Shown here piece after piece: positions 22,039-59,156 of a stretch of 64,000 nt of DNA. A program made the translations under genes and the position numbers. The DNA is from Agarophyton chilense. Taxonomy: Eukaryota; Rhodophyta; Florideophyceae; Gracilariales; Gracilariaceae. The stretch lies in the NCBI GenBank assembly GCA_030374765.1, contig JARGXX010000003.1, positions 1,364,001 to 1,428,000 on the forward strand. The letters are read 5' to 3'. Below the pieces are notes generated by a model. That model was not told where the DNA came from. It saw nothing but the letters and a program-made list of their open reading frames with translations, and did no database searches. Each line of letters starts with the position of its first letter. The stretch's first letter is position 1.

Positions 22039-22833
22039 TGTAGAGCAATCCTAAATGGGGAAATACCTCTAGGGTGTTCGAGTCCTGCTCTCGCGAAGAG
22101 GGGTAACTCAGCGAACGAGCCTTTGTGCCACCGATGTGTGGGTGTAAGACCACAGTGGTTCAGGCAATACCTACGAAGGTGATTAACCCAGGGAAAGGAG
22201 ATGAATCAAAGGGGGATCCAAGGACAAGAATATTCCGTGGACAACGGCAAAGTGTAGGGCGAAAATGTATGGCGAAATAGGACGCACGACCAAGCGTACA
22301 GACCTATGAAAGGGGTATCCACACTGGATAAGCAAAACAAAGACGGGTAAAAACAACCCTATGCAGGGGCGGTGTACTGTCCTAAACACAGGAAAACCAA
22401 TAAAAATGGTACAGTGACGCCTGAGCTTCCCGAGGGGATAGATTAGCCAAACAGGTCGCGGTTCCTCCCGTTAAGAGATGGAGACTCGCGTAGGCGACAT
22501 CATCTAGAGCCAAGCACTCGGTTACCATTTATTTGGTGGTAGCGATGGCGGTGAAGCCATCGCTTACGTCTATTCTAGACAGCGAGCTACACGTGTAGAC
22601 TATAGTAGTGCAAGCCAACTCTGGTCCATACACGTATCATGTGTGTAACCCCAGCCTTGCACGTTCATCTGTCTACTACGATTCTACTGTAGAGACTTAA
22701 ATAACATACCTTCTAAGGTGTCTATAATACTAAAAACTGTTGTTACTCATAAATGAAGTGATGTGGTCCCCGATATATCGGATGCCATATGAATGGTGCC
22801 CCGACCGGTTATACGCGCATGGGTTGCTCTACA
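22039..22833 (-). repeat. 3' LTR of gypsy A
   Basis: Matches the copy at 32255-33069 over its whole length. On the + strand it starts TGTAGAGCAA and ends TTGCTCTACA, a perfect 10-base inverted repeat at the LTR ends. The adjoining polypurine tract shows this is the 3' LTR of a minus-strand element. Confidence 0.92.
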
Positions 22834-22846
22834 TCCCCCCCTCCTT
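22834..22846 (-). promoter_or_regulatory. Polypurine tract of gypsy A
   Basis: On the sense strand AAGGAGGGGGGGA directly abuts the 3' LTR, the expected plus-strand primer. The tracts of the two other gypsy copies (50083-50095 and 34591-34603) also begin AAGGA. Confidence 0.85.
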
Positions 22847-22904: not shown

Positions 22905-24716
22905 ATGGTTGTCACTGATGTTCCGGTTCCTTGTAAGAGCCTCTCGTCTGACTCACTCAGCCCGAGTAATCCCAATATCTCCTCTTCTTCTAAATCGCAG
23001 CTTGCTAAATCTTTTCCAAACGCAATGAATCCCTTTTCGGACAACAACAATCAAATTCCTACCGATGGGCCGAGCTCTGCGGGATCACAATACCACAGTG
23101 TTTTCCTATCAGCTCCGCTTCCCCAGAGGATTTCGCAACCTTTCGTGAACAACCTCGTCGACGTTTCGGTGTGTAATTCACCTCAAACTATGCTCGTCTG
23201 AGCGAATGAATCCGGTTGGATATCGCGCGAATCGCTGATGGTGCGAGATCCTTTTCAGGACAATTTCTTCTTTCCCAGAGCCCCCTCGTTCCATCCCACA
23301 ATGGTTCTCAACAATCAGTTGATCGAATCCTATGTAAAGGATGAGTACCTTCCGGGTGATCTTCCGAGTCAAATTGTCCGTTCCTTCGATTGGAGGACCC
23401 GCATCGTGGTTGACCCTAGTACACTGCTACGCAGGGGAAACGAAAGTCTCGATGATGCGAGGTCCGCTATGGCGCCTCTGGCCTATCAGCGACTCAAACG
23501 TACCTTCGGTGACTCTCCCGTACCGTTGGAGTACAACTTTGATGTTCCCTTCTACCGAACTCGCTGTGAAATATCTAACGGGGATAACCTAGCTGCCTAT
23601 CCGGAAACGGATTACAATGGTCCTGGTGGTCACAAGCTTTTCTAACACATGACGTGTTGGAGCAGACCGATTCTCCGGGCGGAATTTCGATATGTATCGA
23701 GACAATCTCAGAGATCCTTTTGTCAGATGATCCACTTCGAGCGAAAAGCTCGTTCCCAATTCGGGTGTTTCGTACCGTATCCGAATGTTGAGGTTGAACG
23801 CCTCCATCCGCGTTTTCTTCGAGGGAAGTACGTACCCTTTCCCAGATGGCGGAATCAGGTCGAAGTACCCCGTGGGTGTTACGCAGAACTTCCTCCGTGT
23901 CTTACCTACATAGGTTCAAGATTGTTAGCCGATGAGCACTCGGGATACTGGAACTTGGTCCTGCCCGAATGGGCAATCCGCGTTGCGGCATTCCTCCTTT
24001 GGGAGGCCTATGATCAGAGCCGATTGTGGTATTTTCCAATTGCTCTTCGGCCAACAATTCGAATACTTAATCTCTACCCAGCATTGGGCTCTGACGAGAA
24101 CTACCGTGAAACTCATTACTTACTAAGAGTCATCGACAATGTCGATTGGGATGCTGCTCTTCCTTCGAACCGCGCTCGCGGACAAGCCTCTCCGTATGAT
24201 TGGTCTCCGGGACGCCGGCATCCAGGTGCTAGTGACTTTGTGTACTACGACCCATGGGATGGTGTGGTTACGACCGCTGCCCAAGCGGGGAGGTTGCGCC
24301 AACTGACTCGGGGCATCCCAGTAGGATATCCAACTGGATTTGTATACTCTGACACCGCTCCAGTTACCATTGATTCCGATGATCCAAACGTGGATAACCA
24401 GGATGTTATCGCCTCTGGAGGGATTATTCCTATGGGAGTATCCGGTCCGAGTGGCGATACGGATGCTCCGGCGGGTTGGAGATTTACGACGCTCGCACCG
24501 AGTCCGGTTGATTCGCAAGTTGCGGCGATGCGCCTTCATCTCCAATCCATTGGTGTGGAAGTCCCTCCCAAACTAGTTGGTGTGAGAGAGCTCCTAGCCC
24601 TTGCGGCGCAGAACTATCAACCAAATTATGGTGCCCCACAAAGTGGTGGGGCTGGTCCTTTGACTGGGACGTTGTTGTCCCAAAGGGAGATAGACTCACC
24701 TCCATCTAGTGGATAG
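22905..24716 (+). pseudogene. Antisense ORF of gypsy A (unknown protein, two internal stops)
   Basis: On the strand opposite to gag-pol, one frame starts at ATG 22905, 72 bases inside the 3' LTR, and runs 604 codons. It is interrupted only by TGA at 23199 and TAA at 23643, with no frameshift. The N-terminal ~95 residues are Ser/Pro/Asn-rich. The middle is Trp/Tyr/Arg-rich and looks globular (FDWRTRIVVDPSTLLRRG; YWNLVLPEWAIRVAAFLLWE; ETHYLLRVIDNVDWDAALPS). The C-terminal part is Gly/Pro-rich with a final helical stretch (LHLQSIGVEVPP). It aligns remotely with the antisense ORF at 50494-52575: W-x4-VDP-x-S, a shared G..D..W..LVL.E..I..AFL block, ET-x2-LL-x5-V-[DE]-W, DxWD and a final LH-helix. 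No known domain is recognised. The gene could be read from a promoter in the 3' LTR. Confidence 0.8.
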
Positions 24717-25919: not shown

Positions 25920-27250
25920 TCAGCCTAGTGATAATTTCGGAGTTATCCGAGTTCTTTTCGTTGATGTAGAAGAGCCTGTAATAACAGTTTCGGAACGCTT
26001 TGGTAAATCAGAAAAGCCGCGGGTTATGTGCGGGAGAATCTCTGGTCGCGAAGGCGAACTGTCCGTTAAGGATTTGCCACTACCGGAGAAGGCAGTAGGT
26101 TTTAGTACGACATCCGTTGTTAACGGTGAGGCTCTGGTCACTCTATCAAGAGAAAATCGTTCGGGCTGTTTGTCAACTTTTAATACCACTGTGGTCTCAT
26201 AGATTTAGATGACTCGGTAAGGTCCGTCAGCAATCGGTGAGAGCTTGTGTCGTCTATCCTTTTCAGGATTGTATTGTTCCTTACTTACGAACACGAAATC
26301 GTTAACCACTATCTGGGGTAAAGGCTTGCGGATTCGATAATCGAAATTACGCTTATAAACGGCTTGGGCCTTGTCCATTGCTTTCTGGTCAATCGGCAGC
26401 ATTGTTTTTAACCATTTCTTCCAGAATTTCCGATATAACTTCGGTGAGGGGAACGCGGAGAGCGTCGGTTGAGCCGGAATAGCCACTGGTGGTTGGGTGC
26501 GTGATAATACCAACTCAAATGGTGAACGTTAGGTAACCCGATGCACCTAGGTGTAATACGCGTACGATACCGCGTCGGTGTACAAAACCCATTGCTTGGG
26601 GTGAAACGCGACATGGGATCGTAACGCGATCAGCAATGTACGGTTAACCGGTTGTACTTGATCATTTGTTTGAGGATGGTAGGTTGTAGTAAACAGGTTC
26701 CTTATTTCGAGTATTAGACACACGTCTTGAAAGAACTTTGACGTAGACTGTGAGCCATTATCTGAGATCAGATGTACGGGTGGACCGTAGACGAAGACCC
26801 AGTGAGTTACAAAGACCTGTGCCACCGTATAAGCTGTAATCCCTCTAAGTGACGCTGTCGTGAAGAGCTTTGAAAAGCGGTTTGTCATCACCAACAGATA
26901 TCTATTTCCTCGAGGAGTCCTGATTAGTTCACCTAGAAGGCTGATAGCCACGAATTCCAAGGGCGCCCGTGCAGGAAATAGCTTCAACTTCTTCCAGTGT
27001 TTACGTAACTTCACGTCATTTTTCGCGGACTCCTTACAAGAACGGCGTATTGCATAACAGTCAAAAGCCATAGCAGGCCAGTAAAAATCCCTTGTAAGGG
27101 TCAAGTACAATTTTCTTCCTCCATGATGGGAACTCAACTTCGAGTAGTATGAAAGATGGGGTACCCTTTGCTATAAGGAATGGGGAACCACAAGTTGGTG
27201 GTTACATTCGACATTTCGAGCCAGATATCCCTGTTCATCTGCCCCAAAGG
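25920..27250 (-). pseudogene. Integrase of gypsy A (decayed)
   Basis: Pieces in two frames. The DDE core shows LEFVAISLLGEL, where the first catalytic Asp is replaced, then LVMTNRFSK, and LISDNGSQSTSKFF with the second Asp. The catalytic Glu position after YHPQTND reads QVQP, so Glu is replaced by Gln. The C-terminal GPY/F module is visible as ADGPYRVI just before a stop at 26205-26207. A further frame (25920-26189) continues VVLKVDKQPERF. Loss of two of the three catalytic residues and internal stops make it inactive. Confidence 0.88.
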
Positions 27251-27347
27251 GGATTGTTGCTCTTCGATTGAGGCGAGAACGGATCTGTGTACAAAATGGA
27301 TCCATTTGTTGTCCTCCGATAATCTCTTCAGGAGTTAGTCGTACGAA

Positions 27348-28771
27348 TCAACCCGTCAGGGACTCCGAAGGTTCGGCATCCAGTATATCGTCAAACACGT
27401 CATCCGATGTTATTTCGGCGCTTCCATCAGCTTCTCCTACTGCAAAGCAGGGAATCTCTAGATCGTCGATAGGTTCTGTCTCTGCAGAGGTTCCCAAGCG
27501 GGATAACGCATCTGCTTGCGTGATCAGAGTACATTTCTTGTAAAGAATATCGATGTCAAACTCCGCCAATCAAAGGCGCCAACTCATGAGGCGTCCCGGT
27601 GGTTCGGTTATTTTCATAAGCCAACGGAAAGCTGAATGGTCAGTGTGTACCTTGAAATGGTTACCCATAAGATATGGTCGGAGCGTCGCTAGTGGCCAAA
27701 CGACCGCAAGACATTCTTTCTCTGAGACCGAGTAATTAGGTTCATGAACGTTCAGCCTGCGGGACCAGTATCCTATTGGATGTCGTTCACCTTCTGCAGA
27801 GGTCTGAAAAAGCGCACAAACAACTTGGTCTTTGCTCCCATCCAAATCAACTTCAAACTGAAGCCCAAGGTTGGAAGCGCTACTATTGGCGGAGACGTCA
27901 CAGCTTTCACAAGGGAATTGAAAGCAGACGCTTGTGCGTCTCCGAATGGTTCCAGTTCAACTGGTCTTCCTTGCCGAAGGTGGTCATTTAGAGAAGTCGC
28001 AACATCAGCGAAGTTCGGAACGAACCTGCGATACACATTACAAAAGCCAATAAATGATCGGAGTTCCCTTCGATTCGTCGGATATTTCGCTTGTTTCAAG
28101 GATTTGACTCGTACTTAATCGATTGATAGCCGTCCGGGTCGGATTATATGCCCAAGGTATTTGACCGAATCGGTAAAGAACTTACACTTCTTCAGCTTCA
28201 ATATGATTCCTGCGTCGCGCAGTGTCCTCATAACATCCTTAACATGGGAGTGATGCTCGTCCATGTTGTCGGAGAATACGATGATATCGTCCAAATATAC
28301 CAAAGTGGTTTTCCACTTAAAGCGGGCTAATAGAATATCTATGGCAAGTTGAAACGTTGCAGGGGAATTCGTTAAGCAAAACGGAATTAGGCCAAACCGA
28401 TACAAGCCTTGGTGGCAGACAACAGCCGTTTTATTACGGTCCTCCTTTCGAACAGGAACTTGCCAATAACCTCAATTCTCAGAAAGGGCGGTGAACACAG
28501 TCGCGTCTCCAAGCGAATCGAAATATTCATCCATCAGAGGGATCGGGCATTCCTCTTTCACTGTAACTGCATTCAAGCGTCGATAATCAATACAAAATCG
28601 CCACGATCCATCCGCTTTTGGAGCTAATACAACAGGTGGCGGCCAAGGCGATTGAGGTGGTTCTCTGACGCCTGCGCGTAACATCTTCTCAACCTGAGTC
28701 TGCTCTTCTTGCCGAGCCTTCGGTCCAGACCTGTAAAGTTGATGAGCGATCGGCCGAGTATTTGGAAGCAA
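27348..28771 (-). pseudogene. Reverse transcriptase and RNase H of gypsy A (decayed)
   Basis: The RT fingers/palm read WRFCIDYRRLNAVT, then DATVFTALSEN followed by a TGA (28490-28492), then GLYRFGLIPFCLTNSPATFQ, TTLVYLDDIIVF with an intact YLDD catalytic motif, and LKKCKF...YLGHII. The connection is SFIGFCNVYRRFV. RNase H starts near 27845 (MDGSKDQVVCALF, SVSEKECLAVVW, FKVHTDHSAFRWL) after a frameshift and continues to QADALSRLG. Active-site residues mostly survive, but stops and a frameshift split it. Confidence 0.93.
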
Positions 28772-28818
28772 AAGTCAATATGGTGTTCCGTGAATGCTAT
28801 TGTTCCAAGGGTACCATC

Positions 28819-30015
28819 CTACATTGGGGTAAATTCCTTCAACATTTCTCTTAACTTCTCGCGATGAGCTTCTGGGACGTACTCCAGATCTAAATTTTCC
28901 AACTCCTTCATAGCATCCAAATCATCTGTACCAGCCAGAAAAGCCTTCTGTTCCGACCCTCTTGGTTGTGTCGGTCGTGTATCCGAATATTGGAACTCTA
29001 GCTCTACACGTGTAGTGTCAACATCATCATTCACCTCCCCCTCCTTAGGTTCGAGGACTCCGAGAACATCGGTAACCTGTATCTTCGTCGAAACGAGAGC
29101 GGTCGGTTGTGGGAGTACTGAGCCCATTGTTTGATTCTTCGATAACCATTGATAGGTTTTACCGAAGTTGGCCACGAGAACCTTAAAAGCAGTATCTGGT
29201 ACGATTAGAACCAGACCATTCGCCACAGCGAGTTAATGCTTTGTAAAAAAGGAGGCCAAGGTTTGCAAAATATGTAACCCATGTTGTTAGGATGTCACTG
29301 TAACCCAAACTTGTGACTCTGGGGGCATCGTAATCGATTTGGCAACCTTGAGACGCGTTGAACGTGGGTTCTTGTCAGGAGATTCTTGGGAAACCGGTAA
29401 TGGAACTTTCTTTTGTGTTGCCCGCTTCAGCTGTTTCCTTACGATAGGAATCGAGAATCTGTCATCCATCACAACGGTTCTCGTTCTGGGACGAACTGCT
29501 TTGACAAATCGATCACAAAAATCGCAACCCAGTATCACGGGTGCAGCGAGGGAGTCGCAGACTATAAAGTCTAACTGCACCAAATACGTACCCAATCGCC
29601 CTGCGAGAGATGGGGTTCCAATCGTATGGAGCTGATTATTATTCGCATTGGCGATATCCATTCCTGGACCATAGAAAATATTATTCCGAGGTGTCGACGG
29701 TATAATATCAGAATTAATCAAGTTTGGCGCGGCTCCTGTATCCAAAACAGATAGCTGTCTAACCATGAACTGGTGTGATAGGCCAAGGTCTGCATACACC
29801 TTGTAGTTACGCTTGGCCATCAAAAGAACTCTATCCAGAGTACGGGGATTCATAAACCGTATCCACGGACGACGTAAAACAGCTAGGTGTTCCGAGGCAA
29901 CGTCGGTTTTAGCCCTATTCTTTGTAAAGATGGTGACTGGGGAGTGAGGCGGTGACATCTCGGGCGTGTTCAACCTCAACTTGGAAGACGCACTTCCATC
30001 AGGGGAGACTCCCAT
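28819..30015 (-). pseudogene. Aspartic protease and linker of gypsy A
   Basis: The retropepsin motif is LDTGAAPNLI, with the second conserved segment PVILGCDFCDRFV. The frame is the same as that of the main gag segment, so gag and protease look encoded without a frameshift. A stop near 29287 separates a linker (to 28819) that leads into the RT. Confidence 0.85.
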
Positions 30016-30117
30016 GTCTAGTTTTTTGGGCTTGAAGCTTTCGAAACAAGCGGTTGACCTCCATTTGGGAAAACTGACGGATTCCCATTGTTGGGTACGA
30101 CGTTCTGGGTCCGCTGA

Positions 30118-32093
30118 TTAGCGTTCGATTATTGGACGCCGTATGACTGTTGTCGACAGACCAAAATTAGCTGGGGCGCGAAGATACGACCAATTCGGAA
30201 CCCGAGCTTGATCGACAGGCTCCAGAGACTCGCACTGAGTGACAACAGACGGCATCTCACTCAACGTCAACGTGCAACGTGGCGCAATATGACCGAGTCG
30301 ATAACAGAGATGACAAATAGATGCACTCAACGCATTAAACGGCGGGCGAACATTCACGTCCGTCAGTGGGTGTGGTAGTTTGTCCCTCCATCCGGGACGG
30401 GTTCTCCGCATTGCGTTTGTCGCCTGAGCGAGTTGAGCTGCAGTGACTCTTGTGCCACCATTGAAGGTTGGATCGCCTTCAGAGGTTTCAACAGAAGTAG
30501 ACGGCAATTCCGTAGTTGCCATCGAATAATTATCATTCCCAATGAAGTGGATGTTCTCGTGGTCCGTTCTAACGGGTTCTCTGTTTAAGAGTGAAAGAAA
30601 CGGTTAAGGCACTTTGGAGTGAAGTACATTGGACGGACGACGTCCAGTAAATTGTCGGGCACGGAGTGCATCTCCCTCACCAAGGGCATACTTTTCCAGT
30701 TCCAAGTAGGAAATCCTCCGTTTTTATTCACGGCGTCGCGCAACAAGGGCTCTTGTGGCAGGATCGAGTCTATCAACAAGCATTGTACACCGCTCGGACG
30801 CGGAATACACGTTATCACATCGGTGAAACGCCTTATTCAAACAAGTTGAATAGACCGTTTCCGTTTCACTAGGCTTCGGTTTCGTATCGCAAAAAGCGAG
30901 GATTGCATCCTGAATCGCAGTACCAGTGACGTATGATCTCAAAATGTATTGAACGGCTTCAGACCAACAGGTAACTCCTCCTTCCGAGGCTCTCAAGGAT
31001 TCTCGAACTGAAGTATACTGATCTTCAGCCATTCCTTTAAGGAAATGCGGTAGGGCAGTGTAACTTCGCCCCTCGTTCATTTGGAGGATGTCAGCTTCCT
31101 GAAGGAATCTTGCAAGGAAGTCAAGTATTAGAATAGGATATTCACCATTGAATTCCTGCGAACGCAGTGTAAGACCCATCCTTTTGATATAGTCCTGGAC
31201 TTTTCCGGTGCCCTGGGGTGTGCGACTCGACGAGCAATCGTCCAGCCGATAGTAATGGTACAAAAGTAGCTTCCAGTACCACGGATTCGACGACCTCAGC
31301 TCCTTCAATCGAAGGTGACGGCGACCCTTCTCGCAGGAGCGAATAACTCCTTGAGTAGTGCGAGTAGACTTCGAACGTGTCATCCGAGAATTTCGGTGGT
31401 GACTATCTTCTTCTGAGGAGTCAGAGGATGATTCCTCCGAGTGGCGGTAAGAATCTGAACTAGATGAACCCGAACTGTAATGTACCTCTTTTATGGAATA
31501 ACCACGAGTTCGTTTCTTCTCGAATTCAATCGAATGAACTGAAATGGCAATTTCATTCGCCTTGGCAGCAACTTCTTGATCCAATCGGATTACCGCTTCA
31601 AGTGTGTCCAAACGACTTTGGAGACGTTGTGTGTTGGCGCGGACGTCATCAACGTGGTCTGCGTATTTCTTTTTAAAAGTTCCGGGAACACCAGACATTC
31701 CAAAATGGAGTTAACGTCTCTTCGAAGGACTCGAATTTCTCCTGAAACATCCCGAACATGGGCGTCATCCACCATACGACGGAGTTCGGTAACCTCTTAT
31801 AACAGAGAAATATGAGCGATATTTGCAATATGCAAACGCGAGTCCAAGTTTTGGTACTGAGTCGACTCAATGATTTGGTTTACCGCTGACGGTGTTTCAA
31901 TCATTGGTTGTGGTACCACAGGGGCGACCAATTAAGGTTCAGAAGCGGCTGAAGGCGCTCCAAGATCTTCAATATTAGTTCGATCAGCAATTAATTCCTC
32001 CGGGGCGGACATCCGCGAGCGTGGTTCACCACGTGCTGTACCCCTTTCCGCTCGTGTGGAACCCTTCCTCGACGTGGGGGCATGCTGTGACAT
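30118..32093 (-). pseudogene. gag of gypsy A (decayed)
   Basis: It probably begins at ATG 32093 (MSQHAPTSRKGSTRAERG). A frameshift near 31690 and stops at 31797, 30724 and about 30606 interrupt it. The central part has a coiled-coil start, a Ser/Glu-rich linker and a capsid-like helical region (EYPILILDFLARFLQEADI; LRSYVTGTAIQDAILAF). The C-terminus carries a zinc knuckle CHLCYRLGHIAPRC with exact CX2CX4HX4C spacing, the nucleocapsid RNA-binding motif. Confidence 0.88.
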
Positions 32094-32254: not shown

Positions 32255-33069
32255 TGTCGAGCAATTCCAAATGGAGAAATACCTCTCGGGTGTTTGAGTC
32301 CCGCTCTCCCGAAGAGGGGTAACTCAGCGAATGAGCCTTCTCGCCACAAATGTGGGGGTGTAAGACCACAGTGGTTCAGGAAATACCTACGAAGGTGATG
32401 AACCCAGGAAAATGGGAAGAATCAAAGAGGAATCCAATGACAAGGATATTACGTGGACAACGGCAAAGTGTAGGACGAAAACGTAGGGCGAAATAGGACG
32501 CACAACCAAGCGTACAGAACAAAAAAATGGGGGGTCCACACTGGATAAGCGAAACAAAGACGGCTAAAAACAACCCTATACAGGAGCGGTGTACTTTCTT
32601 AAACACAGGAAACCCAAAAAAAGAAAGAAACACACCAACAACAATGGTAAAGTGACGCCTGAGCTTCCCAAGGGGACAGATTAGCCAAACCGGTCGCGGT
32701 TCCTCCTGTGAAGAGACGGAGACTCGAGTAGGCGACATAATCTAAAGCCAAGCACTCGGTTACCATTTATTTGGTGGTAGCAATGGCGGTAAGCTATCGC
32801 TCAAGTCTATTCTAGACAGCGGACTACACGTGTAGACTTAGTAGTGCAAACAAACTCTGGTCCATACACGTATCATGTTTGTAGCTCCAGCCTTGCACGC
32901 CCATCCGTCTACTACGGTTCTACTGTAGAGATTTAAATAACTTACCTTCTAAGGTGTCTAAATGACTAAACACTAATATTACTCATAAATGACGTGACGT
33001 GGTTCCTGATATGTCGGATGCCATATGAATGGTGCCCCAACCGGTTATACGCGCACGTGTTGCTCTACA
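32255..33069 (-). repeat. 5' LTR of gypsy A
   Basis: The partner of the LTR at 22039-22833, with substitutions and small indels along its length. It ends TTGCTCTACA on the + strand and begins TGTCGAGCAA. It should hold the sense promoter. Confidence 0.92.
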
Positions 33070-33250
33070 TTTATCAGTCTCCGAGCGGTCGTGAAACCAC
33101 TGAGCTGCTGTTACTGAAGACAGCCGTCTGAAGAATGTAATTTAAAGCAGGAGGAACATGGTTAGAAAATTAGTTCTTTACATAGAAAATAGAATACGCC
33201 GCTGCAGTATGGAAACCAGCGATTTTTAATTATTTTTTTGGAAAATAGAA

Positions 33251-34146: not shown

Positions 34147-34590
34147 TGTAACGCAATGACTGGTAGGTCAGCGTACTAGTCTTAACCGGTGGTAGCGTGG
34201 TAGAGCGGGTCAAGGTTCGAATCCTTGACGGCGGCACTCCCAGAGTACTTGCTGCAATGGGCTGGCGTTAACTGCGTAGTCGTACAGGTTCAAGCTACGG
34301 AAACGATGGCTTGAATACCAAAGGGTGGAACGAATATACCAAAGGGGGTTATTTAGTATCCTATTTGGGCCTACCGTACTCTAAGGAAGAAGCGTCAGTC
34401 GAGCCAAGTAAGTAACAATGGCGAGGCGCTGGAATCACCCTGGAAATGTAATGCTAATCTATTACACTAATTAAAATAAAACAATAATCTAAATGGGCCT
34501 AGCTGAGGCCGGCCCGTCCACGTGTCGCCTGTAAGATACCTCAGGCCCCAGCGGCTAACATGGCTCAACCTTTATCGTTGCTCCTTCACA
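34147..34590 (-). repeat. 3' LTR of chromovirus X
   Basis: 444 bases, + strand TGTAACGCAATGAC to CTCCTTCACA, with terminal TG/CA. Homologous to 36699-37074 (inverted) and 49638-50082. It lacks several variants that those two share (for example the block around GAGATCTCCCTGGCACTG), so those two form the closer pair. Confidence 0.9.
34186..34236 (+). other. tRNA-like module inside the LTR
   Basis: CCGGTGGTAGC then GTGGTAGAGC resembles a tRNA acceptor/D-arm with A box. GTCAAGGTTCGAATCCTTGAC is a perfect T-arm hairpin (stem extended to 7 bp, loop TTCGAAT) with a consensus B box GGTTCGAATCC, followed by GGCGGCA. The anticodon arm is missing. It is also present in the LTR at 49677-49729. Confidence 0.7.
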
Positions 34591-34603
34591 TATCTCCGTC
34601 CTT
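34591..34603 (-). promoter_or_regulatory. Polypurine tract of chromovirus X
   Basis: The sense strand reads AAGGACGGAGATA, directly abutting the 3' LTR. Confidence 0.75.
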
Positions 34604-35023
34604 AATACTCGGCCGTCACGAAGTCCAGATGGCCTCGTGATTGACCAAGGGGACGCGAGCACTTCGTTGCTCCCGGTACCATTGGGTGCGACAGGACGTC
34701 GCGTCGTCATCGCCTGCGGGGATGCGGGGATGCGTGAGCTGAACACTGGCGCCGGAGTGGCAATTATTTGGCGTAAGGATTGAAATTCCCGCGCGCCGTG
34801 GGCGCTGGCCATAGGTGCATCGCCAGCGCATTGCTCGCGTGGCGTTGCCAAGATGGTCCATTGGCTTCTTTTCCTCTGAAATTCATTGGTGCCTTCCTTA
34901 GTCTCCGTTCTTCCTTTGGCGACCCTCCGCGCTTTGTCCACCGTCTTTCACGCCTGTCAGTCCGTTCGGTTCATTTCCATCGCCTCGTCTTCCCATCGTG
35001 GTACTTTTCAATTGGTCGCGCGC

Positions 35024-36698
35024 GATGCCGAACTCGCCTTATAAGCCCATCGAATATGCTATTCTCCCTCCAGGCTATGTCGCTTCCGTCGGCTTTCCTA
35101 TCCATTTTCCGGCGGTCCAGTCTGTGGGCAGCGGCACCATGGCTTCAAACAACCAAGAAAAGATCTCCTCGGGATACCAAGTAGCTTACGAACGTCCCGG
35201 GGACCGCTATGACCATACCATCGGACAGAATCCGCGGGCAGTGCGTCATGCCATTCTGCCGTCAACTGTAAAAGAATACCAGTGGTTTTGACATATTTAT
35301 CTCGACGCCTGAAGGTTTGCTAAGATACCCGGTTTCCGGAGGGGCAGTAAAAACGCGAGCAGCGCCTCGTGGTATAACCGGTGGTTGCATTTTCCTGTGG
35401 ATCCGCGTTCGGCGACGCGCTGTCGCACCCTCATCCAATAGTATATGCCGTACGTCAGCTGCGGGGAGGAAGCCTAGTATCAGTTCAGGGGGAAAAAACA
35501 ACTTTCAGATCTATACACGGACTTCATCTCGCCTCATGCGAGATTTCCTCTGGTGGGTCGCAACCTCTTGGCGCTCATGTGCTTTTGACCGCCGTATGAC
35601 CGCCTGTTTTGGATGTCCAGTAGGGTCTGTTTGAACGAGATGCACAAGCTCAATGGTCGTTTACGTCAATCCCTGTAGTTCTTCTTCTGCTGGCACCAGG
35701 TGGAGTTTCACAACATGAGCGCCGAAAACCGTCCTCTCTTATAGCTCTAGTTGTCCCGTGCGGATGAGAACCAATGTGCCATGTACTGGCGTGTCTCGCC
35801 GCTCCTTCTGGTTCCCACGCCGTTCGTGGTGGCGTATCATTCGTCCCAACTCATGGGTGACGACAATGACCGAAGGTTTTGATTGTCTTGGCAGGTACTT
35901 TTCGTCGAGTTCGGCGTGATGTTCCTTATGGACTTCCTGGATACCGCGAATTACGCAGTTCGCGGTAATGGCCGTTCGGAGGATTGGAGGGTAGCCTGGG
36001 CATTCAGAATACAGTCCATGCGACCAAGTTCGAGGTCAAGGAGACCAAGGCCCTTTTGGATCATGTCCTACAGGGCAAATGGGGCAAGATTCCCGGGTTC
36101 CTTTGGTATGACCACGATACCGACTCTTTCACGCCGATTCCGCTACATCCGCAGGGTCAGGACGACGCTCGGGGCTATCCCGCCCAGCCTTTGAGGAATT
36201 AACCATCGGACATTCCGAGGCGTAATGTGCCCGACTTATACCCGAAGGCCATTGGTTTCGATCCCCTGTGCTTGGAGCCTGATGTGGAAGCCACGCCGTT
36301 TATTCCAGCTGGTATGTCCGATGGAAATCTTTTTGGAGAAGATCCCTTCGTCCTGCCCGTAGAGGGCGTCAATTTTACGGTCGAGTTTGCTGTTGTGTTG
36401 CCGACCGCTTCCCGTCCTCCAGCTCCTCCAGGCGCTGCTCCTCAGGATGAACTCTCATATGAGCCGCCCGTCGCCCAAGTAGACATCCCCACTGGCAAGG
36501 TTACTATCGAGGCCGAAAGTCGTGTAGGTGATGCGCTGGCTCAAACGTCCATTGGGGGCGTCGACATCGCTCCGTCCTCTCCGTTGCCACACTTTTCTGC
36601 TTCGGTCACGGTTGCAGCCGCAGATCTCCATCATGTCTGCCGTACCGTTGGTATCACTGCCTCGATGGACACTGCGACAGTCCTGAGGGAAGCTTGCT
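35024..36698 (+). pseudogene. Antisense ORF of chromovirus X, N-terminal part
   Basis: It starts at ATG 35024 (MPNSPYKPIEYAILPPGYVASVG), homologous throughout to the ORF at 50494-52575 but with several stops and frameshifts in the middle. The last part (36227-36698) is again clean: VPDLYPKAIGFDPLCLEPDVE, DDPFVLPVEGV-like, then HHVCRTVGITASMDTATVL and EAC. It ends exactly at the Y LTR at 36699. Its continuation (WARRSARNTA) is found on the minus strand from 49637 down. Confidence 0.8.
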
Positions 36699-47650: not shown

Positions 47651-49010
47651 CAAACTGCACGGAACTGTACATCGTGCGCACAAATCCGAGGGTCTTGCAC
47701 CAACCATCAAGCCAGATTGAAGCTATTTCCCGGCGCAGGTCCGATGGAATTTGTCGCAATGGATATACTTGGGCCTTTTCCTAAGTCTTCCCATGGGAAA
47801 CGGTTTGTTTTGGTTATAACCGATAGGTCTACCAAGCGTACCCAAGCCGTACCTCTAGGAAAGCCAACAGCCACGGATGTCGCCACGGCTTTCTTGACCC
47901 ACTGGGTAGATCCATATAGCATACCACTATACCTCATTACAGATAACGGCAGCCAGTTTGTATCCAAATTCTTTTCACAGGTTTGTGCAATCTTATGTTT
48001 CAAACATCGGACCACCACGGCGTACCACCCGGAAACCAGTGGCCCAGCCAAACGCTTCAACCGCACCCTTCTCTACCATTTGGCACACTACATATAGGAG
48101 CACCAATTGGACTAGGACGACTACGTTGAGCCACTGGTTAATGCCTACAACACGCAAGTGCACGTTTCCAGAGGGACAACACCTTTCGACTTAAAGCTAA
48201 CGAGATCGCCGCCGCCGATAGCTGTTGACCTTCCCCCAGTACATAACCGAAGGGATGACTCCTACCCAGGCGAAAGTCTACTCACGCCGACGCATCCACC
48301 GCATTATCCAGTCGGCTAGAGCTGTAATAACGAAGGCCCAATGGCGCTACATGGTCCATTTCGAAAAAGTCGTTTGGAACACACTGACCTTTGGAAAAGG
48401 AGGACTTTTTTACCTGGACTGGCCTCCGAAGGACAGTAAAAAACCTGAGGACACTACGCGGAAGCTCTTGCCTCGCTCTACTCTATGGGACCATAAAAAG
48501 TCCTTAAGGCCAATCAACACACCATTGCGTTACTAATTGACGGCCTACAGGACACCGTATCGAGTGATCGGGTGAAACGAGCCCCCAGCTCCCCCGAACC
48601 ACCAAAGTCCCAGTCCCCTAGTCCAATGAAATCACTACGGCCTCAGGTCGACGCTCAAGTTTCGACACCCCCTCAGGCAGTTTCCGCAGACCCGACTAGC
48701 CCCATGGACCCGATGGTCAATGCCAATGACGATGACCCATCTCTTCCAACCGACTCCGATTGATTCGCCCCTCTGGACTACACTCTCCTGCTGTGGAATG
48801 AATACCAACTGGAATATGTGATTGAGGGCATCATCTCCGTTGGGCGGTGGGATGATGGAACTAGGCGCTATTGCGTCCGTTGTTTTGCCTACACACCTGA
48901 AGAAGACACTTAGAAAGAGCCTCAAACCATTCCGCATAATTTTATCCCCCGCTATTGGCGCAAAATTGGAAGCACGCAGCGCAGCCCTCAGGAGGGGGCA
49001 ACTATTGGCT
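47651..49010 (+). pseudogene. Integrase end and chromodomain (X-derived 3' segment)
   Basis: The integrase core reads MEFVAMDILGPFPKS (first Asp), LITDNGSQFVSKFF (second Asp), then YHPETSGPAKRFNRT, where the catalytic Glu position holds Lys. From 47864 the sequence is only about 80% like the other arm. The linker and Pro/Ser-rich tail follow, then a chromodomain at 48803-48961 (YQLEYVIEGIISVG, RRYCVRCFAYTPEEDT, a TAG, KEPQTIPHNFI). The tryptophan expected after EEDT is the TAG. Chromodomains steer integration to modified histones. Confidence 0.85.
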
Positions 49011-49231
49011 CGAATAATCCCAAAACGTGTCTCGAAACGCCTCCCGACACGACGGTTCGCCGGAGCACGACAGTTCTTTGTAGCTCCCGCATCAGGGAAC
49101 AAAGTCAGTCTTAAAGGCGACACCTGAGGACGACCTGAGACGCTCTCAAGGTTTGACGACGTCCCGCGGCACGCACTTTTGAGATACGGGAGTGACGTTG
49201 GGAAAGCACAAGCATTACTTTATTTGAAATC

Positions 49232-49637
49232 CTAACAGAGGCCTAGCACCCCTCTCCATGACCTATAGGTGCGCGGAAGCGCTCCGAACACCAACAGGAC
49301 TAACGGGAGTGGCGCAGGAGTAGCTCTATCGTCCTCATTGGAGCCTACAGAAGCGAATCCGGGTCTGATTTTACCCGGGGAGCCTATTGTACCACTAGGA
49401 CCGGCCCCAGTGAGTCGAGCACGCTTCGTCGGCGGAGGTTCCCCTGAGAAACTATTGTCACCATCGGAAGCCTCCTGCTCGCTCAAACCTTGGCCATACC
49501 GGGCATCCAAGTTGGCAGTAACCCTCTGGGACATCACCTGAGCATTATGCTGCAGGATATTAACCCTGGCAGTGTTCAGATCCTGACCCTGTTGGACAAA
49601 AGCGGTGTTGCGCGCCGAACGACGAGCCCAGGAGCAA
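49232..49637 (-). pseudogene. Antisense ORF of chromovirus X, C-terminal part
   Basis: On the minus strand from 49637: CSWARRSARNTAFVQQGQDL, then MSQRVTANLDARYGQGLSEQ, DGDNSFSGEPPPTKRARL and a Gly/Pro/Ser tail. It is homologous to the C-terminus of the ORF at 50494-52575. It begins exactly at the codon where the + strand fragment at 36698 ends. PPTKRARL resembles a nuclear localisation signal. Confidence 0.85.
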
Positions 49638-50082
49638 TGTAATGCAATGACGGGTGGGTCAGCGTATGGGTCTCGACCGGTGGTAGCGTGGTAGAGCGGG
49701 TCCTAAGGTTCGAATACTTGCCGGCGGCACTCCCAGAGTACTTGGTGCAAGTGCTGGCCTTTACTGCATAGTCCCACAGGTTGGAGCTACGGAAATGATG
49801 GCTTGAAGACCAAAGGGTCGAAATAATATACCGAAGCGGGTTATTTAGTATCCTAACGGTGCCTACCGTACTATAAGAGAGAAGCGTCACTCGAGCCAAG
49901 TAAACAGTACTGGCGAGGCGCTGAGATCTCCCTGGCACTGCAATGCAAATCTATTACAATAATTAAAACAAATTAATACTCTACATGGCTCCACCGGAGG
50001 TCGACCCGTACACATGCCACCTGCAATATCCTGCAGAGCCCGGCTGCTTATAGGGCTCAACCGCTATGATCTCTCCTTCACA
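49638..50082 (-). repeat. 3' LTR of chromovirus Y (in flipped orientation)
   Basis: 445 bases, TGTAATGCAATGAC to CTCCTTCACA on +. It is oriented opposite to its partner at 36699-37074, which is abnormal for one element. It is preceded by GCAA, the complement of the TTGC before the partner. The tRNA-like module lies at 49677-49729. Confidence 0.9.
49677..49729 (+). other. tRNA-like module inside the LTR (second copy)
   Basis: The D-arm-like CCGGTGGTAGCGTGGTAGAG and T-arm-like AAGGTTCGAATACTTG are kept, with two changes in the T stem relative to 34186-34236. Confidence 0.65.
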
Positions 50083-50095
50083 TATCTCCCTCCTT
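50083..50095 (-). promoter_or_regulatory. Polypurine tract of chromovirus Y
   Basis: The sense strand reads AAGGAGGGAGATA, directly abutting the 3' LTR. This fixes the LTR at 49638 as a 3' LTR. Confidence 0.8.
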
Positions 50096-50493
50096 AGGAT
50101 TTGGCCTTCACCGCGAAGTCCAGATGGCCTCATGATGGACCCACGGGACGCAAACACTTCGTTGCTCCCGGTACCATTGGGTGCGACGGGACGTCGCGTC
50201 GTCACCTCCTGCGGGGATGCAGGGAAGCGTGAGCTGCCAATTGGCGCCGAAAAGCAATTATTTTGCCTAAGGACGGAAACTCCCTTGCGCCGTGAGCGCT
50301 GGCTAAAGGGGCATCGCCGGCGTATTCCTTGCGTCGCGTTGCTTAGACGGTCCATTGGCTTCTTCCTTAGTCTCGGTTCTTTCTTTAGCGACCCTCCGAG
50401 CTTCGTCCACCGTGGTTCACGTTAGTCAGTCCGTCCGGGTTGATTCCATCACTCCGCCTTACCATCGTGGTACTTTTCCATCGGTCGCGCGCG

Positions 50494-52575
50494 ATGGCAG
50501 ACCCGCCTTATAAGCCCGTTGGATACGCCGTACTTCCTTCGGACTATGTCGCCTCCGTCGGCTCTTTCATCTTTTTCCTGGCGGACCAACCTGGGGCCAG
50601 CGGTACCATGACTTCGAACATCCCAGCTGGAAGGTCATCGGGATACTGAGTGGCCTATAAACGTCCTGGGGACCGCTATTACCATACCATCGGACGAAAC
50701 CCACGGGCTGTGCGTCATGCCGCTCTTCCGTCCTTTGTGGAAGGAAACCAAAAGTTTTGCCATATGTATCTCGACGCCCGAAGGTTTGTTAAGATATCCG
50801 ACTTTCAGAGGGGCAGAAAGAATGCGCGCAGCGTCTCGTGGTATAACCGATGGTTGCATTGTCCTGTGGATCCGCGTTCGGCGACGCGATGTCACACACT
50901 CATTCAAGTGGACATGTCATACGTCCACTGCGAGGAAGAAGCCGACTACCAGTTCAGGGTGAACAAACTCCTTTCGGACCTATACACAGACTTCATCTCG
51001 CCTCATGTGAGAATTCCTCTGGCGGGTCAAAACCTCTTGGCGCTCATGTGCTTTTGACCGCCGTATGACCGCCTGTTCTGGATGTCCAATAGGGTCTATT
51101 GGAACGAGATGCAAGAGGCAGATGTTCGTTTACGTCAATCCCTGGAGTTCTTCTTTTGTTGGCACCAAGTAGAGTTCTATGACATTGGCGCAGACAAACG
51201 TCTTCCGTTATACCGTTCGCTTCCTCATGAGGATGAGAACCAATGGGCCATATACTGGCGAGTCTCGCCGCTTCTTCTGGTTCCCATGCCGTCCGTGGTG
51301 GCGCACCACTCGCCCCAACTCATCGGAGCTGACAATGACCGAAGGTCGTGGCTGTCCTGGCAGGTACTCTTCGTTGAGTTCGGCGTGATATCCCTTATGG
51401 CCTTTCTGGATACTGCAAAGTACGGAATCCGGGGTAATGTCCGTTTGGAGGAATGGATGGTTTGGTACGATGAGAACATACCCGGTCCTCGAGGTCGCCT
51501 GATACCGCTCCCGGACATCATGATCCGCTTCCTAAGGAACCTGGGCATCCAGAATATCGTCCGTGGGACTCAGTTCGACGTTCAGGAGACCGAGGCCCTT
51601 TTAGATCATGTCCTAGAGGTAGAGTGGGGTAAGACTCCCGGGTTCCTTTTATATGACTGGGATACCGACTCATTCACGCTGATTCCGCTGCATACTCAGG
51701 TTCAGGACGACGCTCCTGCCTCTACCGCCAAGCCTTTGACGAATCAACCATTGGACATTCCGAGACGTCATGTGCCCGACTACTATCCGAAGGTAATTGG
51801 TTTCGATCCTCTGTGCTTCGAGCCTGATGTGGAAGCCAGGGCGTTGGTTCCTGCTGGTATGTCCGACGGAGAATCCTTGGGTGATGATCCCTTCGTCCTA
51901 CCGTGGAGGGCGTTTACCCTGCAGTCGAGTCCGCTGTGTTGTTGCCGACTGCTCCCCCTCCTCCAGCTCCTTCGGGCGCTACTCCTTAGGATGAGCTCTC
52001 GTAAGAACCGCCCGTCACCCAAGTGAATATTCATCCAGGCGAGGTTACTGTCGAAACCGAAAGTCCTATAGGCGAGGTACTTGCTCAAACGTCAACCCAG
52101 GGGCGTCGACATCGCTCCGTCCTCTCCGTTGGTACACTTTCCTGCTTCAGTCACGGTTGCAGCCGCGGACATCCTTCATGTCTGCTGTACCGTTGGTATT
52201 AAGGCCTCGATGGACATTGCTACAGTCCTGAGCGAAGCCTGCCCCTGGGCGCGTCACTCGGCTCGCAACGCCGCGGTTGTCCAACAAGGTCAGGACCTGA
52301 AGACCGCCATGGTCAATATCCTGCAGCAGAATGCGCAGGTGATGTCCCAGAAGGTGACTGCCAACTCAGATGCCCGTTATGGTCTCAAATTGAGTGACCG
52401 GGAGGTTTCCGATGGTGACAATAGTTTCTCAGGTGAATCTCCGCCAAAAAAGCGTTCTCGGCTCGCTGGGGCTGGTTCAGGTGGTCCAGTGGGCTCTTCA
52501 GGTGACTCTAGTCCCGGTTTCGCTCCTGCAAGTTCCAATCAGGACGACGGAATTACTCCTACGCCGCCTCAGTGA
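50494..52575 (+). pseudogene. Antisense ORF of chromovirus Y (most complete copy)
   Basis: On the strand opposite to pol, it starts at ATG 50494 (MADPPYKPVGYAVLPSDYVA), about 410 bases inside the 3' LTR, and runs about 690 codons to TGA/stop at 52573. It is broken by TGA at 50647 and 51055 in the same frame and by frameshifts near 51903 and 52080. A CAA codon in the X copy replaces the first TGA, so the stop is a decay event. The middle is aromatic-rich and globular (WQVLFVEFGVISLMAFLDTA; QETEALLDHVLEVEWGKTPG). The C-terminal quarter has a helical segment (LHVCCTVGIKASMDIATVL), a Gln/Asn-rich stretch and the NLS-like PPKKRSRL. It converges tail-to-tail with the chromodomain end of pol. No known domain is recognised. 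Confidence 0.82.
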
Positions 52576-52757
52576 GTCTGGTTGGTGTTCGGAGCGCTTC
52601 CGCGAACCTTGAGGTCATAACAAGGGCTGTTAGGTTTCTGTCAGTTACTCGAAAAAGTTAAATACAGTAGGGCTTGCGCTTTCTCAAGGTATTTCTTGTG
52701 TCTCAAATGTGCGTGCCCCGGGACGGCGTCCAATCTTCAGAGTGTCTCGGGTCATCC

Positions 52758-54263
52758 TCAAGTGTCTCCGAAGGACTGAATTTGTTCCCTGATGCGGGAG
52801 TTACGAAGCACAGTCGTGCTCCGGCAAACTGTCGTGTCGGGAGACGGTTTGGGAGGCGTTTTGGAATTATTCGGACCAGTGGTTGGATTATTTGGACCAA
52901 TGGTTGCCCCCTCCTGAAGGCCGCGCTCCGAATCGCTGATTCTGCGCCAATAGTGGGCGATAAAATTAGCCGGAATGGTTTCAGGCTCTTGCCAAGTATT
53001 TTCCTCAGGTGTGTAGCCGAACCAACGGACGCGATAGCGCATAGTTCCAACTTCTCCCCGACCGGCGGAGATGATGCGCTTAATCACATATTCCGGTTGA
53101 TGTCCATCTTCCGGGAGGAGAGAGTTGTCCAGAGAGGCGAATCAATCGGAGTTGGTTGGGAGCGATAGGTCATAGTAGTTGGCAGTGACCATCGGGTCCA
53201 TGGAGCTCGTCGGGTCTGCGGAAACTGCCTGAGGGGGTGTGGAGGCTTGAGCGTCGACTTGAGCTCGTGGTGCTTTCGTTGGGCCAGGAGGCTGGGACTT
53301 TGGTGGTCCGGAGGAACTGGGAGCTCGTGTCACGCGGTCAATACACACGGTGCCCTTGAAGCAGTCGATGAGCAATGTGATGGTGTGTTCATAGGCCTTA
53401 AGGACATTTTATGGTCCCGTAGAGCGGGGTAAGAGCTTCTGCGTAGTGTCGTCAGGTTCTTCACTGTCTTTCGGTGGCCGGTCCAAGTAAACAAGGTCTT
53501 CTTTCCCAAACGTGGGTGTGTTTCAAACGGCTTTTTCGAAATTGAACTTGTAACGCCGTTGGGCTTTGGTTAGTACAGTTCTGGCCGATTGGAGAATGCG
53601 GTCAATGCGTCGGCGCGAGTAGCGCTTCGCCTGGGTAGGAGTCCTCACTTCGGTTATGTACTGGGGTATGATAGACTCCTGAAGGTCAACAGCTATCGGC
53701 GGCGACGCTCTCGTTAGCATTAAGTCGAAAGGCGCTTTGTCTGTGGGAGCATACACCTGCGTATTGTATGCGTACACCAGTGGCTCAACTTAATCGTCCC
53801 AGTCCATTTGTTGATCCGATAAGTATTGCGCCAATCGGTTCAGAATTGTGCAGTTGAAGCGTTGGCCTTGGCCATTGGTTTGCGGGTGGTACGCCGTGGT
53901 GGTCACATGTTTGATACCTAAGGTAGCACAGACATGCGAGAGTAATTTGGATACAAACTGGCTGCCGTTATTCGTAAGGAGGTAGAGTGGCAATGCATAT
54001 GGATATACCCAGTAGGACAAGAAGGCCTTGGCGACATCCGTGGCCATTGTCTTTCCTAGAGGTACGGCTTGGGTACGCTTGGTAGACCTATCGGTTATAA
54101 CCAAAACAAACCGTTTCCCATGGGAAGACTTAGGAAAAGGCCCAAGTATATCCATTGCGACAAATTCCATCGGACCTGCGCCGGGAAAAAACTTCAATTT
54201 GGCTTGATTGTTGGTGCAAGACCCTCGGATTTGTGCGCACGATGTACAGTTCCGTGCAGTTTG
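52758..54263 (-). pseudogene. Integrase end and chromodomain (Y-derived 3' segment)
   Basis: The integrase core reads MEFVAMDILGPFPKS, LLTNNGSQFVSKLL (the second catalytic Asp is replaced by Asn) and YHPQTNGQGQRFNCT, where the catalytic Glu is Gln. A TAA (53787-53789) cuts the frame after QQMDWDD. The GPY/F module is seen as RSTGP followed by a stop. The chromodomain at 52944-53103 is better preserved than the X copy: EYVIKRIISAGRGEV, MRYRVRWFGYTPEENTWQEP, ETIPANFIAHYW, with the three aromatic-cage positions plausible. A Pro/Ser-rich stretch separates the two. Confidence 0.88.
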
Positions 54264-56249
54264 TCATAGGTCCTGTGTCCTAAGAGGCCAGTAGAAGAAC
54301 TTCCTTAAGGTCTGGTACATTCGTCTGCCTCTAAGATGGCCAGCCAAGCGGGGGAAATGGGCGAGGTATAGGAATCGCGCCTTTAGCGAAGTTTGTATTA
54401 CCCGTTTGAGTGCGCCATCCAGCGGTGAGCGGCGACATAGTAGTCCAAATCGGTCATAGTCGAACAGGCATCCTGGGGTTCCCACCAATTGGCCTGATAC
54501 CTTGCAGTAGTCGTCTTCGGCCTGCGCCTGTAGGAGTTCCTCAATAGATATAGGGAGGAGTTCTTTTTCCTCCGGGGCTATCGCATTCACCTGAGGTGGT
54601 GCCGAATTGGGCGGTACTGTTTCCCAGTCGAATAGGTATACTTCGTTCTCCTTTACCTCAGGATCCTCCGATTGCACCTTGTCCATAAGGTCATCTCTTT
54701 CTGTGTAGTCATGAGGTCCATCATCTGTAAAGGGGGTAGGAATTAGGTCGTCCAATGCAGTGTCGTCAGTTCCGTCGGTAATAATTCGCGACAGGGCATC
54801 TGCTGCCTGATGCTTGATGCCTGGCCTATAGGTTATCTCGTAGTCATATTCTGAGAGCCTGGGGCGCCACCTAGCGAGGCGACTCGATGCATCGGTCATA
54901 TTGAGTAACCAGCGGAGTGAATCATGGTCTGTTTTAATGGTAAACCTAGTTCCCTCTAGGTACGGACATAGTTTCAATACAGACCATACGATGGCTAGAC
55001 ATTCTTTTTCGGTCGTACAGTAGTTTCGCTCAGCGCTGGTGAGCGTTTTGCTCTAGTAGCCAATAAGTTGATAGTCCTTCGGTGAATCCTGTTCCTGCAG
55101 CACTGCACAACCCACTTAAGTATCAGGGGCATCTGTTTCCAGGAAGAAAGGCCTATTGGGCTTTGGTATAGCCAACATGGGTGGGTTCAGCAATTTGTGC
55201 TTTAGGATCTGAGATTCCTCGTACTGCTCGTCGGTAAGGGCTTCGATCTCCGAAGGTGTTCCCTTCTTCAGCATTGCGTTGAGAGGGGCCGAGATCTTGG
55301 CAACTCCTTGGACGAACCGTCGGTAAACGTTGCACAAGCCCACGAAGGATCGTAGTTCCGTGTGGATCCTAGGAGGCTGAGCCTGGCCAATCGCATTTAT
55401 GGTCCGTATGGCCCCCTTTAGCTTTTCTGGGGGGACGACGTGACCGAGAGAGTCCACTGAGGCCTGAAAGAAGGCGCATTTGCGGTGTTTCAGTTTTACT
55501 CCAGTGTCTTGTAGGATTGTTAACACTTTCTTCACGTTGCGAAGGTGTTCCTTTACGGTCCGTGAGAAGATTATTACGTCATCCAAATAGACCAGGGCGA
55601 ATTTACATTTGACTCTGGACAGTATAATGTTCATTACACGTTTGAAAGTGGCTGGTGCATTCTTCAAACCAAAGGGCATGCGAGTAAATCTGAACAGACC
55701 TTCATGGGTGGTAAAGGTTGTCAGCGCTCTCACGTCTTCGGCCAAAGAGATTTGCCAGTATCCGGAGTTAGCGTCCAGTGTGGTAAATACGACAGCTTCG
55801 CCTAAGGAATCCAGACAGTCGTCCATGCGGGGTATCGGGTATGAGTTCCTCTTGGTTACTGCGTTCAGCTTCCTGTAGTCGACACAAAACCTGACGGAGC
55901 CATCTTTCTTTGCCACAAGGACAAGGGGACTTGCCCATTCGGACTGGTTTGGAGGCGCCGGCTAAATGACTTGAGCTTTGCGCATCGTGTCCATCTGGTC
56001 GGTGACACTTTCTCTACCTTTAAGGCCGGTACGGTATGGGTGCTGGAACTGTGGTATAGCATCATTTTGAAGGTCGATGCGGTGTGTAGTGGCTCTGATT
56101 GTGCTCAATCTGCCTGACCACATGGCCTGGTACTCCCTAAGGAGATCAAGTACCTGGGGCCTATAGGGTTCGAATTCTGCTCCGATAGCGACCGTCCCCT
56201 CCCAAGAGTTTACGTCCTCGTCAGGAATTGGCGTCGCAAGGTTATCCAT
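54264..56249 (-). pseudogene. RT and RNase H in the right arm
   Basis: Same proteins, same frame and same premature stops as 45665-47650: the segments 54264-54977, 55116-55916 and 55962-56249 are identical in translation to the left-arm segments. The YLDD motif is intact. Shared stops mean the arms were made alike after the element had already decayed. Confidence 0.95.
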
Positions 56250-58320: not shown

Positions 58321-58598
58321 AAATGAGTTGGCGGTGGAGTTGGCAATTTGCAGGTTGGCTGCAGTGACAATGGTTGATAAGACTGGCAACTGGGAAGCGG
58401 CCAGAGAACTCGAAGAGGAGCACGACGATTTGATAAACGAGTAAATGAAGCGAAGGCTTCACAAGTCGGCAAAACTTCGTAAGGAGTTTAAGAAGGATAA
58501 GTCTGCCTTGCGGAAGCAAGGAGACGGGAACGAAAATTAATATAAAAACAACGACAGCAACAACAACAACAATTTTTAATTCGACGGGCAGGCGGGAC

Positions 58599-59144: not shown

Positions 59145-59156
59145 AGAAAACCGAAA

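What the first reader, a model, noticed from the sequence alone, without database searches (positions are those of the whole stretch)
50494..52575. Long antisense ORF between pol and the 3' LTR in chromovirus Y, with a remote homologue in gypsy A
Directly seen: in three gypsy copies (A, X, Y) the stretch between the end of pol and the 3' LTR holds a 600-690 codon frame on the strand opposite to gag-pol, starting 70-430 bases from the 3' LTR. In A it is one frame with only two stops in 604 codons (22905-24716), more open than its pol. A and Y share ordered motifs (W-x4-VDP-x-S; a W..LVL.E..I...AFL block; ET-x2-LL-x5-V-[DE]-W; DxWD; a final LH helix) although their LTRs are unrelated in sequence. 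Inference: this is a selected accessory protein expressed from an antisense promoter in the 3' LTR. Antisense genes are known from some retroviruses and plant gypsy elements, but I know of none with these motifs.
Basis: partly seen in the sequence, partly recalled or inferred. Interest (0 to 1): 0.88.

Follow-up and report, generated by a model that had tools for sequence, protein, structure and literature searches.

The report
Antisense gene in red-algal retrotransposons
Jumping genes (Ty3/gypsy retrotransposons) in a red seaweed genome carry an extra protein gene on the opposite strand near their 3' end; selection keeps it about as strongly as their enzyme gene, its only named relatives are from red algae, and what it does is still a guess.

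Summary
The frame is real and is a gene. The copy at 50494-52575 is broken, but the frame recurs in over 100 listed copies of the genome, and a related subfamily ("A2") has it intact: in L069 a 618-codon ORF lies opposite to pol, 79 bases from a 3' LTR whose pair is 98.7% identical, with a 5-bp target-site duplication. Of 73 copies with a listed RT within 8 kb, 71 have RT on the opposite strand beyond the frame's 3' end. dN/dS in the frame is 0.46 (Y) and 0.52 (A2), against 0.53 for pol; frames out of third-position register give 0.93-1.35. Y and A proteins are remote homologues (hhalign 96.8%, E 2e-10). The named relatives are red-algal (8 of 14 proteins found). No Pfam, PDB or fold match. 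[quoted passage not shown] A nuclear regulatory role and a 3'-LTR antisense promoter are inferred, not shown.

The parts
50494..52575 (+). Antisense accessory frame of chromodomain gypsy element Y (broken copy: four internal stops, a shifted stretch near 51.9-52.1 kb)
   Evidence: compared with intact copy L070:1967-4015
49638..50082 (-). 3' LTR of Y (TG..CA ends); the frame's leader must start in it or in the 411 bases behind it
50083..50098 (-). Polypurine-tract-like run at the LTR edge (complement of TATCTCCCTCCTTAGG), similar in A and A2
52764..53141 (-). Chromodomain at the end of Y pol
   Evidence: PF00385 E 3.4e-7
53790..54263 (-). Integrase core of Y pol
   Evidence: PF00665 E 1.1e-11
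54267..55052 (-). RNase H and integrase zinc-binding part of Y pol
55116..55961 (-). Reverse transcriptase of Y pol
   Evidence: PF00078 E 2.2e-34
22905..24716 (+). Antisense accessory frame of gypsy element A (two internal stops)
22039..22834 (-). 3' LTR of A
26212..30990 (-). gag-pol-homologous DNA of A (two pieces, 67% and 74% identical to L069)
32255..33070 (-). 5' LTR of A
34147..36698 (+). X: 3' LTR (34147-34590) and front part of a Y-type frame (from about 35000), cut at 36698 and not followed by its own pol in the expected orientation

Best explanation
Ty3/gypsy elements of this red alga (nearest named relatives: Agarophyton, Gracilariopsis) carry a third gene, antisense to gag-pol, between pol and the 3' LTR. 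It codes for a 600-700 residue protein of a family of its own. SHOWN: position, strand, intactness in a young copy, purifying selection about equal to that on pol, homology between two gypsy lineages and to proteins from other sources. INFERRED: the mRNA starts in or just inside the 3' LTR, on the strand opposite to the genomic RNA, so the protein can be made separately from Gag-Pol; the protein acts in trans, most likely in the nucleus, as an accessory or regulatory factor of the element's own cycle (LTR transcription, RNA export, or the pre-integration complex), as proposed for plant Grande gene23 and Retand TRP28 proteins.
For: Antisense layout: 71 of the 73 copies with a listed RT within 8 kb have it on the opposite strand beyond the frame's 3' end (37 of 37 for A2, 34 of 36 for Y). 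Intact copy L069: pol 1446 codons, antisense ORF 618 codons, LTR pair 98.7% identical, TSD CAACC. No stop in 38 of 71 A2 copies over about 617 codons (counted by eye). dN/dS 0.460 (95% codon bootstrap 0.416-0.511, 29 rows) and 0.516 (0.387-0.715, 12 rows) against pol 0.528 (0.405-0.687, 9 rows); stops 98 of 20699 codons in frame, 438-796 in the other five frames of Y; 19 of 8034 against 127-271 in A2. Homologues named Gracilariopsis chorda (1) and Agarophyton chilense (7), plus 6 without a name. ATG 79 (L069) and about 70 (A) bases from the LTR. Nuclear hint: KKRxRL near the C-terminus in 19 of 30 Y loci.
Against: No RNA or protein evidence. The nuclear role rests on a short basic motif in the least constrained part of the Y protein (codons 601 on, dN/dS 0.75); the A2 protein is acidic overall (pI 5.4; Y 5.7) and lacks that motif, with only an Arg-rich stretch. 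The model of the A2 protein is weak (mean pLDDT 57.9, pTM 0.49) and matches nothing in PDB or BFVD; the Y model failed (pLDDT 30). 34 of 71 and 88 of 124 copies had no listed RT within 8 kb (the RT lists are capped, so this does not show absence). Two Y copies had the nearest listed RT on the same strand. In the pol control one non-coding frame also fell below 1 (0.736, 25 of 1000 bootstraps at 1 or more), so a value below 1 by itself is not proof; the count of stops is needed too.
Confidence: 0.6

Rival explanations
1. The antisense protein is real but structural or catalytic rather than regulatory: for example a particle, assembly, cell-to-cell transfer or integration-targeting factor.
For: Selection about as strong as on pol; conserved Arg-rich block RxERKxRSRFG and the RPILRAEFRY and VEVPRGC stretches; mostly helical core in the weak model; shared by elements with and without a detected chromodomain.
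Against: No enzyme or capsid family hit at the thresholds tried and no fold match for the weak A2 model; the review of such genes reports a nuclear location for one of them and proposes a regulatory role (PMC7264820, parts 1-2 of 3 read).
Confidence: 0.27
2. The antisense transcript itself (double-stranded RNA, small RNAs) is what matters and the open frame is incidental.
For: Antisense RNA regulation is discussed for plant and animal elements (PMC7264820).
Against: Substitutions between copies are biased to synonymous sites of this frame as in pol, and stops are about 4-14 times rarer than in the other frames; the amino-acid sequence is 36-50% identical to five proteins from other sources, one of them named G. 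chorda.
Confidence: 0.05
3. Separate nested transposon or host gene fragment that happens to lie there.
For: X and Y lie in a rearranged, partly palindromic locus; a host single-copy homologue was not excluded.
Against: Near-constant position relative to RT in two subfamilies on many contigs and relative to the LTR in A, Y, L069 and L070.
Confidence: 0.03
4. Chance open frame without function.
For: The window has many long open frames on both strands and this copy has stops.
Against: dN/dS below 1 in 1000 of 1000 bootstraps in both subfamilies, with few stops; homologues from other algae.
Confidence: 0.01

Closest known systems
Plant antisense additional ORFs between pol and 3' LTR (aORF-3R): Grande gene23, RIRE2, PvRetro13 ORF2
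   Same: Same place and strand, present in most copies, function unknown, nuclear role suspected (PMC7264820)
   Different: No detectable relationship in sequence: no Pfam match and no protein named as a plant's in the homologue lists; these plant proteins were not compared one by one. Host is a red alga. Grande gene23 is reported to have its own upstream promoter; here untested.
Retand-lineage antisense TRP28 (Transposase_28, PF04195) proteins
   Different: PF04195 not matched by any of 10 family members at E up to 10 (HMMER's filters drop most weak matches); Retand is described there as non-chromovirus, whereas Y has a chromodomain
Boty of Botrytis (fungal gypsy with an antisense ORF)
   Same: Antisense ORF between pol and 3' LTR outside plants (named in PMC7264820)
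   Different: Fungal; its protein was not compared here
Antisense genes of HTLV-type retroviruses (HBZ; name and details recalled)
   Same: Antisense gene at the 3' end, read from a promoter in the 3' LTR (promoter: PMC7264820), product regulates the element (recalled)
   Different: A retrovirus; in HTLV the antisense gene overlaps other genes (recalled), here it has its own space

Membership tests
aORF-3R (antisense additional ORF between pol and 3' LTR) | Lies between the end of pol and the 3' LTR | tested here: met
   L069: pol ends 5462, ORF 6664-8520, LTR 8600-9512; Y: chromodomain 52764-53141, frame 50494-52575, LTR 49638-50082
aORF-3R (antisense additional ORF between pol and 3' LTR) | Opposite strand to gag-pol | tested here: met
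   71 of 73 copies with a listed RT within 8 kb
aORF-3R (antisense additional ORF between pol and 3' LTR) | Present in most copies, conserved like other element proteins | tested here: inconclusive
   Conservation met: dN/dS about equal to pol. Over 100 listed copies each of Y and of A/A2 type, but the share of all elements that carry it was not measured
aORF-3R (antisense additional ORF between pol and 3' LTR) | Antisense transcript from an own promoter | not testable with these tools
   No RNA data
TRP28 / Transposase_28 proteins (PF04195) | Match to PF04195 | tested here: not met
   0 of 10 members at E up to 10
Chromovirus (Y element) | Chromodomain at the C-terminus of integrase | tested here: met
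   PF00385 E 3.4e-7 at 52764-53141
Chromovirus (A2 element L069) | Chromodomain at the C-terminus of integrase | tested here: not met
   No PF00385 in pol or its last 420 residues at E up to 1

The most novel reading that the evidence does not exclude
One ancient antisense gene has stayed with gypsy elements of red algae since before, or was passed across, the split between chromodomain and non-chromodomain lineages: their RT is still 52% identical while the antisense proteins are down to about 18%. It would be a fast-evolving, self-encoded nuclear regulator read from the element's far end, a retroviral-style antisense switch in a third group besides land plants and fungi.
Probability: 0.3. 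Interest if true: 0.75.

Novelty: new member of a known kind. Interest (0 to 1): 0.58.

Why it matters
Antisense genes at the 3' end of LTR elements are described in land plants and in a fungus, of unknown function (PMC7264820). A red-algal family with its own protein, over 200 listed copies, an intact young insertion and selection about as strong as on pol makes convergence testable: if unrelated proteins keep arising at the same place and strand in distant hosts, the position itself (an antisense unit at the 3' LTR) must offer something to the element. It also gives annotators of seaweed genomes a label for 'hypothetical proteins' such as BWQ96_10156 of Gracilariopsis chorda, whose own genomic setting was not checked.

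Tried and rejected

Literature: searches for such a gene in algae found no description (open-access PMC text only; listings seen). Of the papers listed there only one genome paper of the red alga Gracilariopsis lemaneiformis (PMC5970526) was looked into, by term: LTR retrotransposons named, 'antisense' 0 times. One search (not limited to algae) listed five papers; PMC7264820 (parts 1-2 of 3) and PMC11963269 (abstract, discussion) were read, PMC5408684 by term only, the other two as listing only.

Rows dropped: L010 (same copy as reference L070), L012 (insertion, poor alignment) and L066 (same copy as L071) before the dN/dS; they were still in the counts of stops. For the pol control only the best BLAST piece of each of eight loci was used; two of these (L004, L005) look like duplicates of each other. 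Some Y loci are also close duplicates (L031/L034, L033/L038) and were kept.

Full report
What was claimed.

The host. The window is G000:C3:1364001-1428000 of a 79.8 Mb, 135-contig genome. The named protein relatives of the frame are from Gracilariopsis chorda (one) and Agarophyton chilense (three, 60-79% to Y; four, 87-97% to A2), the latter a red alga of the Gracilariaceae. The host is therefore a red alga close to, or in, Agarophyton (inference).

The copy in hand. Y frame 50494-52575 (+) has four internal stops in 693 codons and a stretch near 51.9-52.1 kb that is out of frame against the intact copy L070. Chromodomain, integrase, RNase H and RT of Y are on the minus strand to its right, and the 3' LTR (49638-50082) to its left. 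Element A has the same layout with LTRs at 22039-22834 and 32255-33070. X does not: its frame front is followed, at 36698, by an LTR and a gag-pol block on the same strand.

Other copies. A search of the whole genome with 322 residues of Y scored 124 places, itself and 123 others at 66-81% identity (capped list). With 356 residues of A it scored 114: 25 at 70-100%, itself included, and 89 of a further subfamily, A2, at 48-50% (capped list). With the A2 protein of L069, 71 places were scored at 95-100% over 610-617 residues; 38 of 71 have no stop (counted by eye). In L069 pol is open for 1446 codons and the antisense ORF for 618; the ORF ends 1.2 kb from pol and starts 79 bases from the LTR. 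The LTR pair of that copy differs at 11 of 913 sites (K 0.012), with TG..CA ends and the duplication CAACC: a recent insertion.

Layout count. I compared the 71 A2 and 124 Y places with the RT places listed for each type (150 of 3614 and 138 of 3697 candidates were scored). RT within 8 kb was listed for 37 A2 and 36 Y copies. In 37 of 37 and 34 of 36 the RT is on the opposite strand beyond the frame's 3' end; two Y copies had the nearest listed RT on the same strand, 4.9 and 6.1 kb away. Edge-to-edge gaps in A2 (nominal match lengths) are 3.62-3.75 kb in 30 of 37, 2.16-2.30 kb in 6 and 1.87 kb in 1. In Y the distance between lower coordinates is 3.9-4.1 kb in the 34. The other 34 A2 and 88 Y copies had no listed RT, which the capped lists do not let me read as absence.

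Selection. Pairwise Nei-Gojobori dN/dS (Jukes-Cantor corrected), pooled, in the frame: Y 0.460 (29 rows, 406 pairs), A2 0.516 (12 rows, 66 pairs). Of the other five frames three give 1.03-1.35 for Y and 1.09-1.20 for A2, and the straight opposite frame 0.93 and 0.98. The remaining frame, on the opposite strand with the same third positions, gives 0.55 and 0.51 as expected from the shared register, but has 796 stops in 20674 codons (Y) and 271 in 8021 (A2) against 98 in 20699 and 19 in 8034 in the frame. Pol of the A2 type, the positive control at similar divergence, gives 0.528 (9 rows); its other frames give 0.98, 1.38, 1.51, 0.74 and (shared third positions) 0.57. 0 of 1000 bootstraps reached 1 for either antisense frame. 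So the frame is held by selection about as strongly as pol. The Y constraint is strongest at codons 201-300 (0.31) and weakest from 601 on (0.75).

Relatedness. Profile comparison of A-type and Y-type alignments without P0009 and the A. chilense proteins was weak (27%, E 7e-4). With these added to the Y side it is 96.8%, E 2e-10 over 203 columns at 18% identity (E for one comparison). This rests partly on P0009, a protein of unnamed source. RT of the two lineages is 52% identical; Y has a chromodomain, none was detected in L069.

Relatives elsewhere. Three searches of 5.8 billion proteins gave 5, 4 and 6 hits, 14 different proteins (about 8000 candidates sharing most words were scored each time, so distant relatives can be missed). 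The 8 named ones are red algae; P0001, P0003, P0004, P0005, P0009 and P0011 carry no name, so the range beyond Gracilariaceae is not known. Whether these relatives also lie antisense to pol could not be checked.

Mechanism. The start codon lies 79 (L069) and about 70 (A) bases from the LTR, 411 in Y and L070, and a polypurine-tract-like run marks the same LTR edge in A, Y and L069. A leader longer than this must begin in the 3' LTR in A and A2, which makes an LTR-borne antisense promoter the simplest inference. Function: Y proteins carry a KKRxRL motif, basic like classical nuclear localisation signals (recalled), in 19 of 30 loci, which fits the nuclear location reported for Grande gene23 (PMC7264820); A2 lacks it. 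I give a regulatory nuclear role about 0.4 on its own, and the gene itself about 0.97.

Known kind. [quoted passage not shown] PMC11963269 (abstract and discussion read) reports them in all recently active Retand elements surveyed. The layout is thus known; the protein family and the host group appear new by the searches named in Tried and rejected.

Noticed in passing
window 37911-49636 and 52240-64000: Large inverted duplication, 96.3% identical over 11.8 kb, while the stretches in front of the two arms (34147-36697 and 49638-52242) are only 80-82% alike: recent inverted duplication or homogenised arms of a palindrome.
   Followed up: partly
window about 40.07-45.45 kb and 56.46-61.85 kb: Both arms carry about 5.4 kb inside the gypsy element, next to the start of its pol part, that L070 lacks: a nested insertion with long open frames of unknown kind. 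A second difference of about 1.6 kb lies at 38.38-39.95 and 61.97-63.53 kb.
   Followed up: no
window 974-2413 (+) and 8522-10528 (-): Ordinary-looking host genes in the G+C-rich left end: a Hint-module protein (PF01079, E 3.5e-27) and a copine (PF07002, E 4.1e-54).
   Followed up: no
window 20534-21637 (+): Transposase of the DDE_Tnp_1_7 family (piggyBac-like, recalled), E 9.8e-15.
   Followed up: no
G000, A2 elements: The gap between RT and the antisense frame is 3.62-3.75 kb in 30 of 37 paired copies but 2.16-2.30 kb in 6 and 1.87 kb in 1: a shorter class, perhaps with part of pol or of the spacer missing.
   Followed up: no
L070 1967-4015: Antisense frame fully open (682 codons) in a copy whose gag-pol shows only short open pieces and whose LTRs differ by K 0.27 without a target-site duplication; a mosaic copy or a retained frame.
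   Followed up: partly
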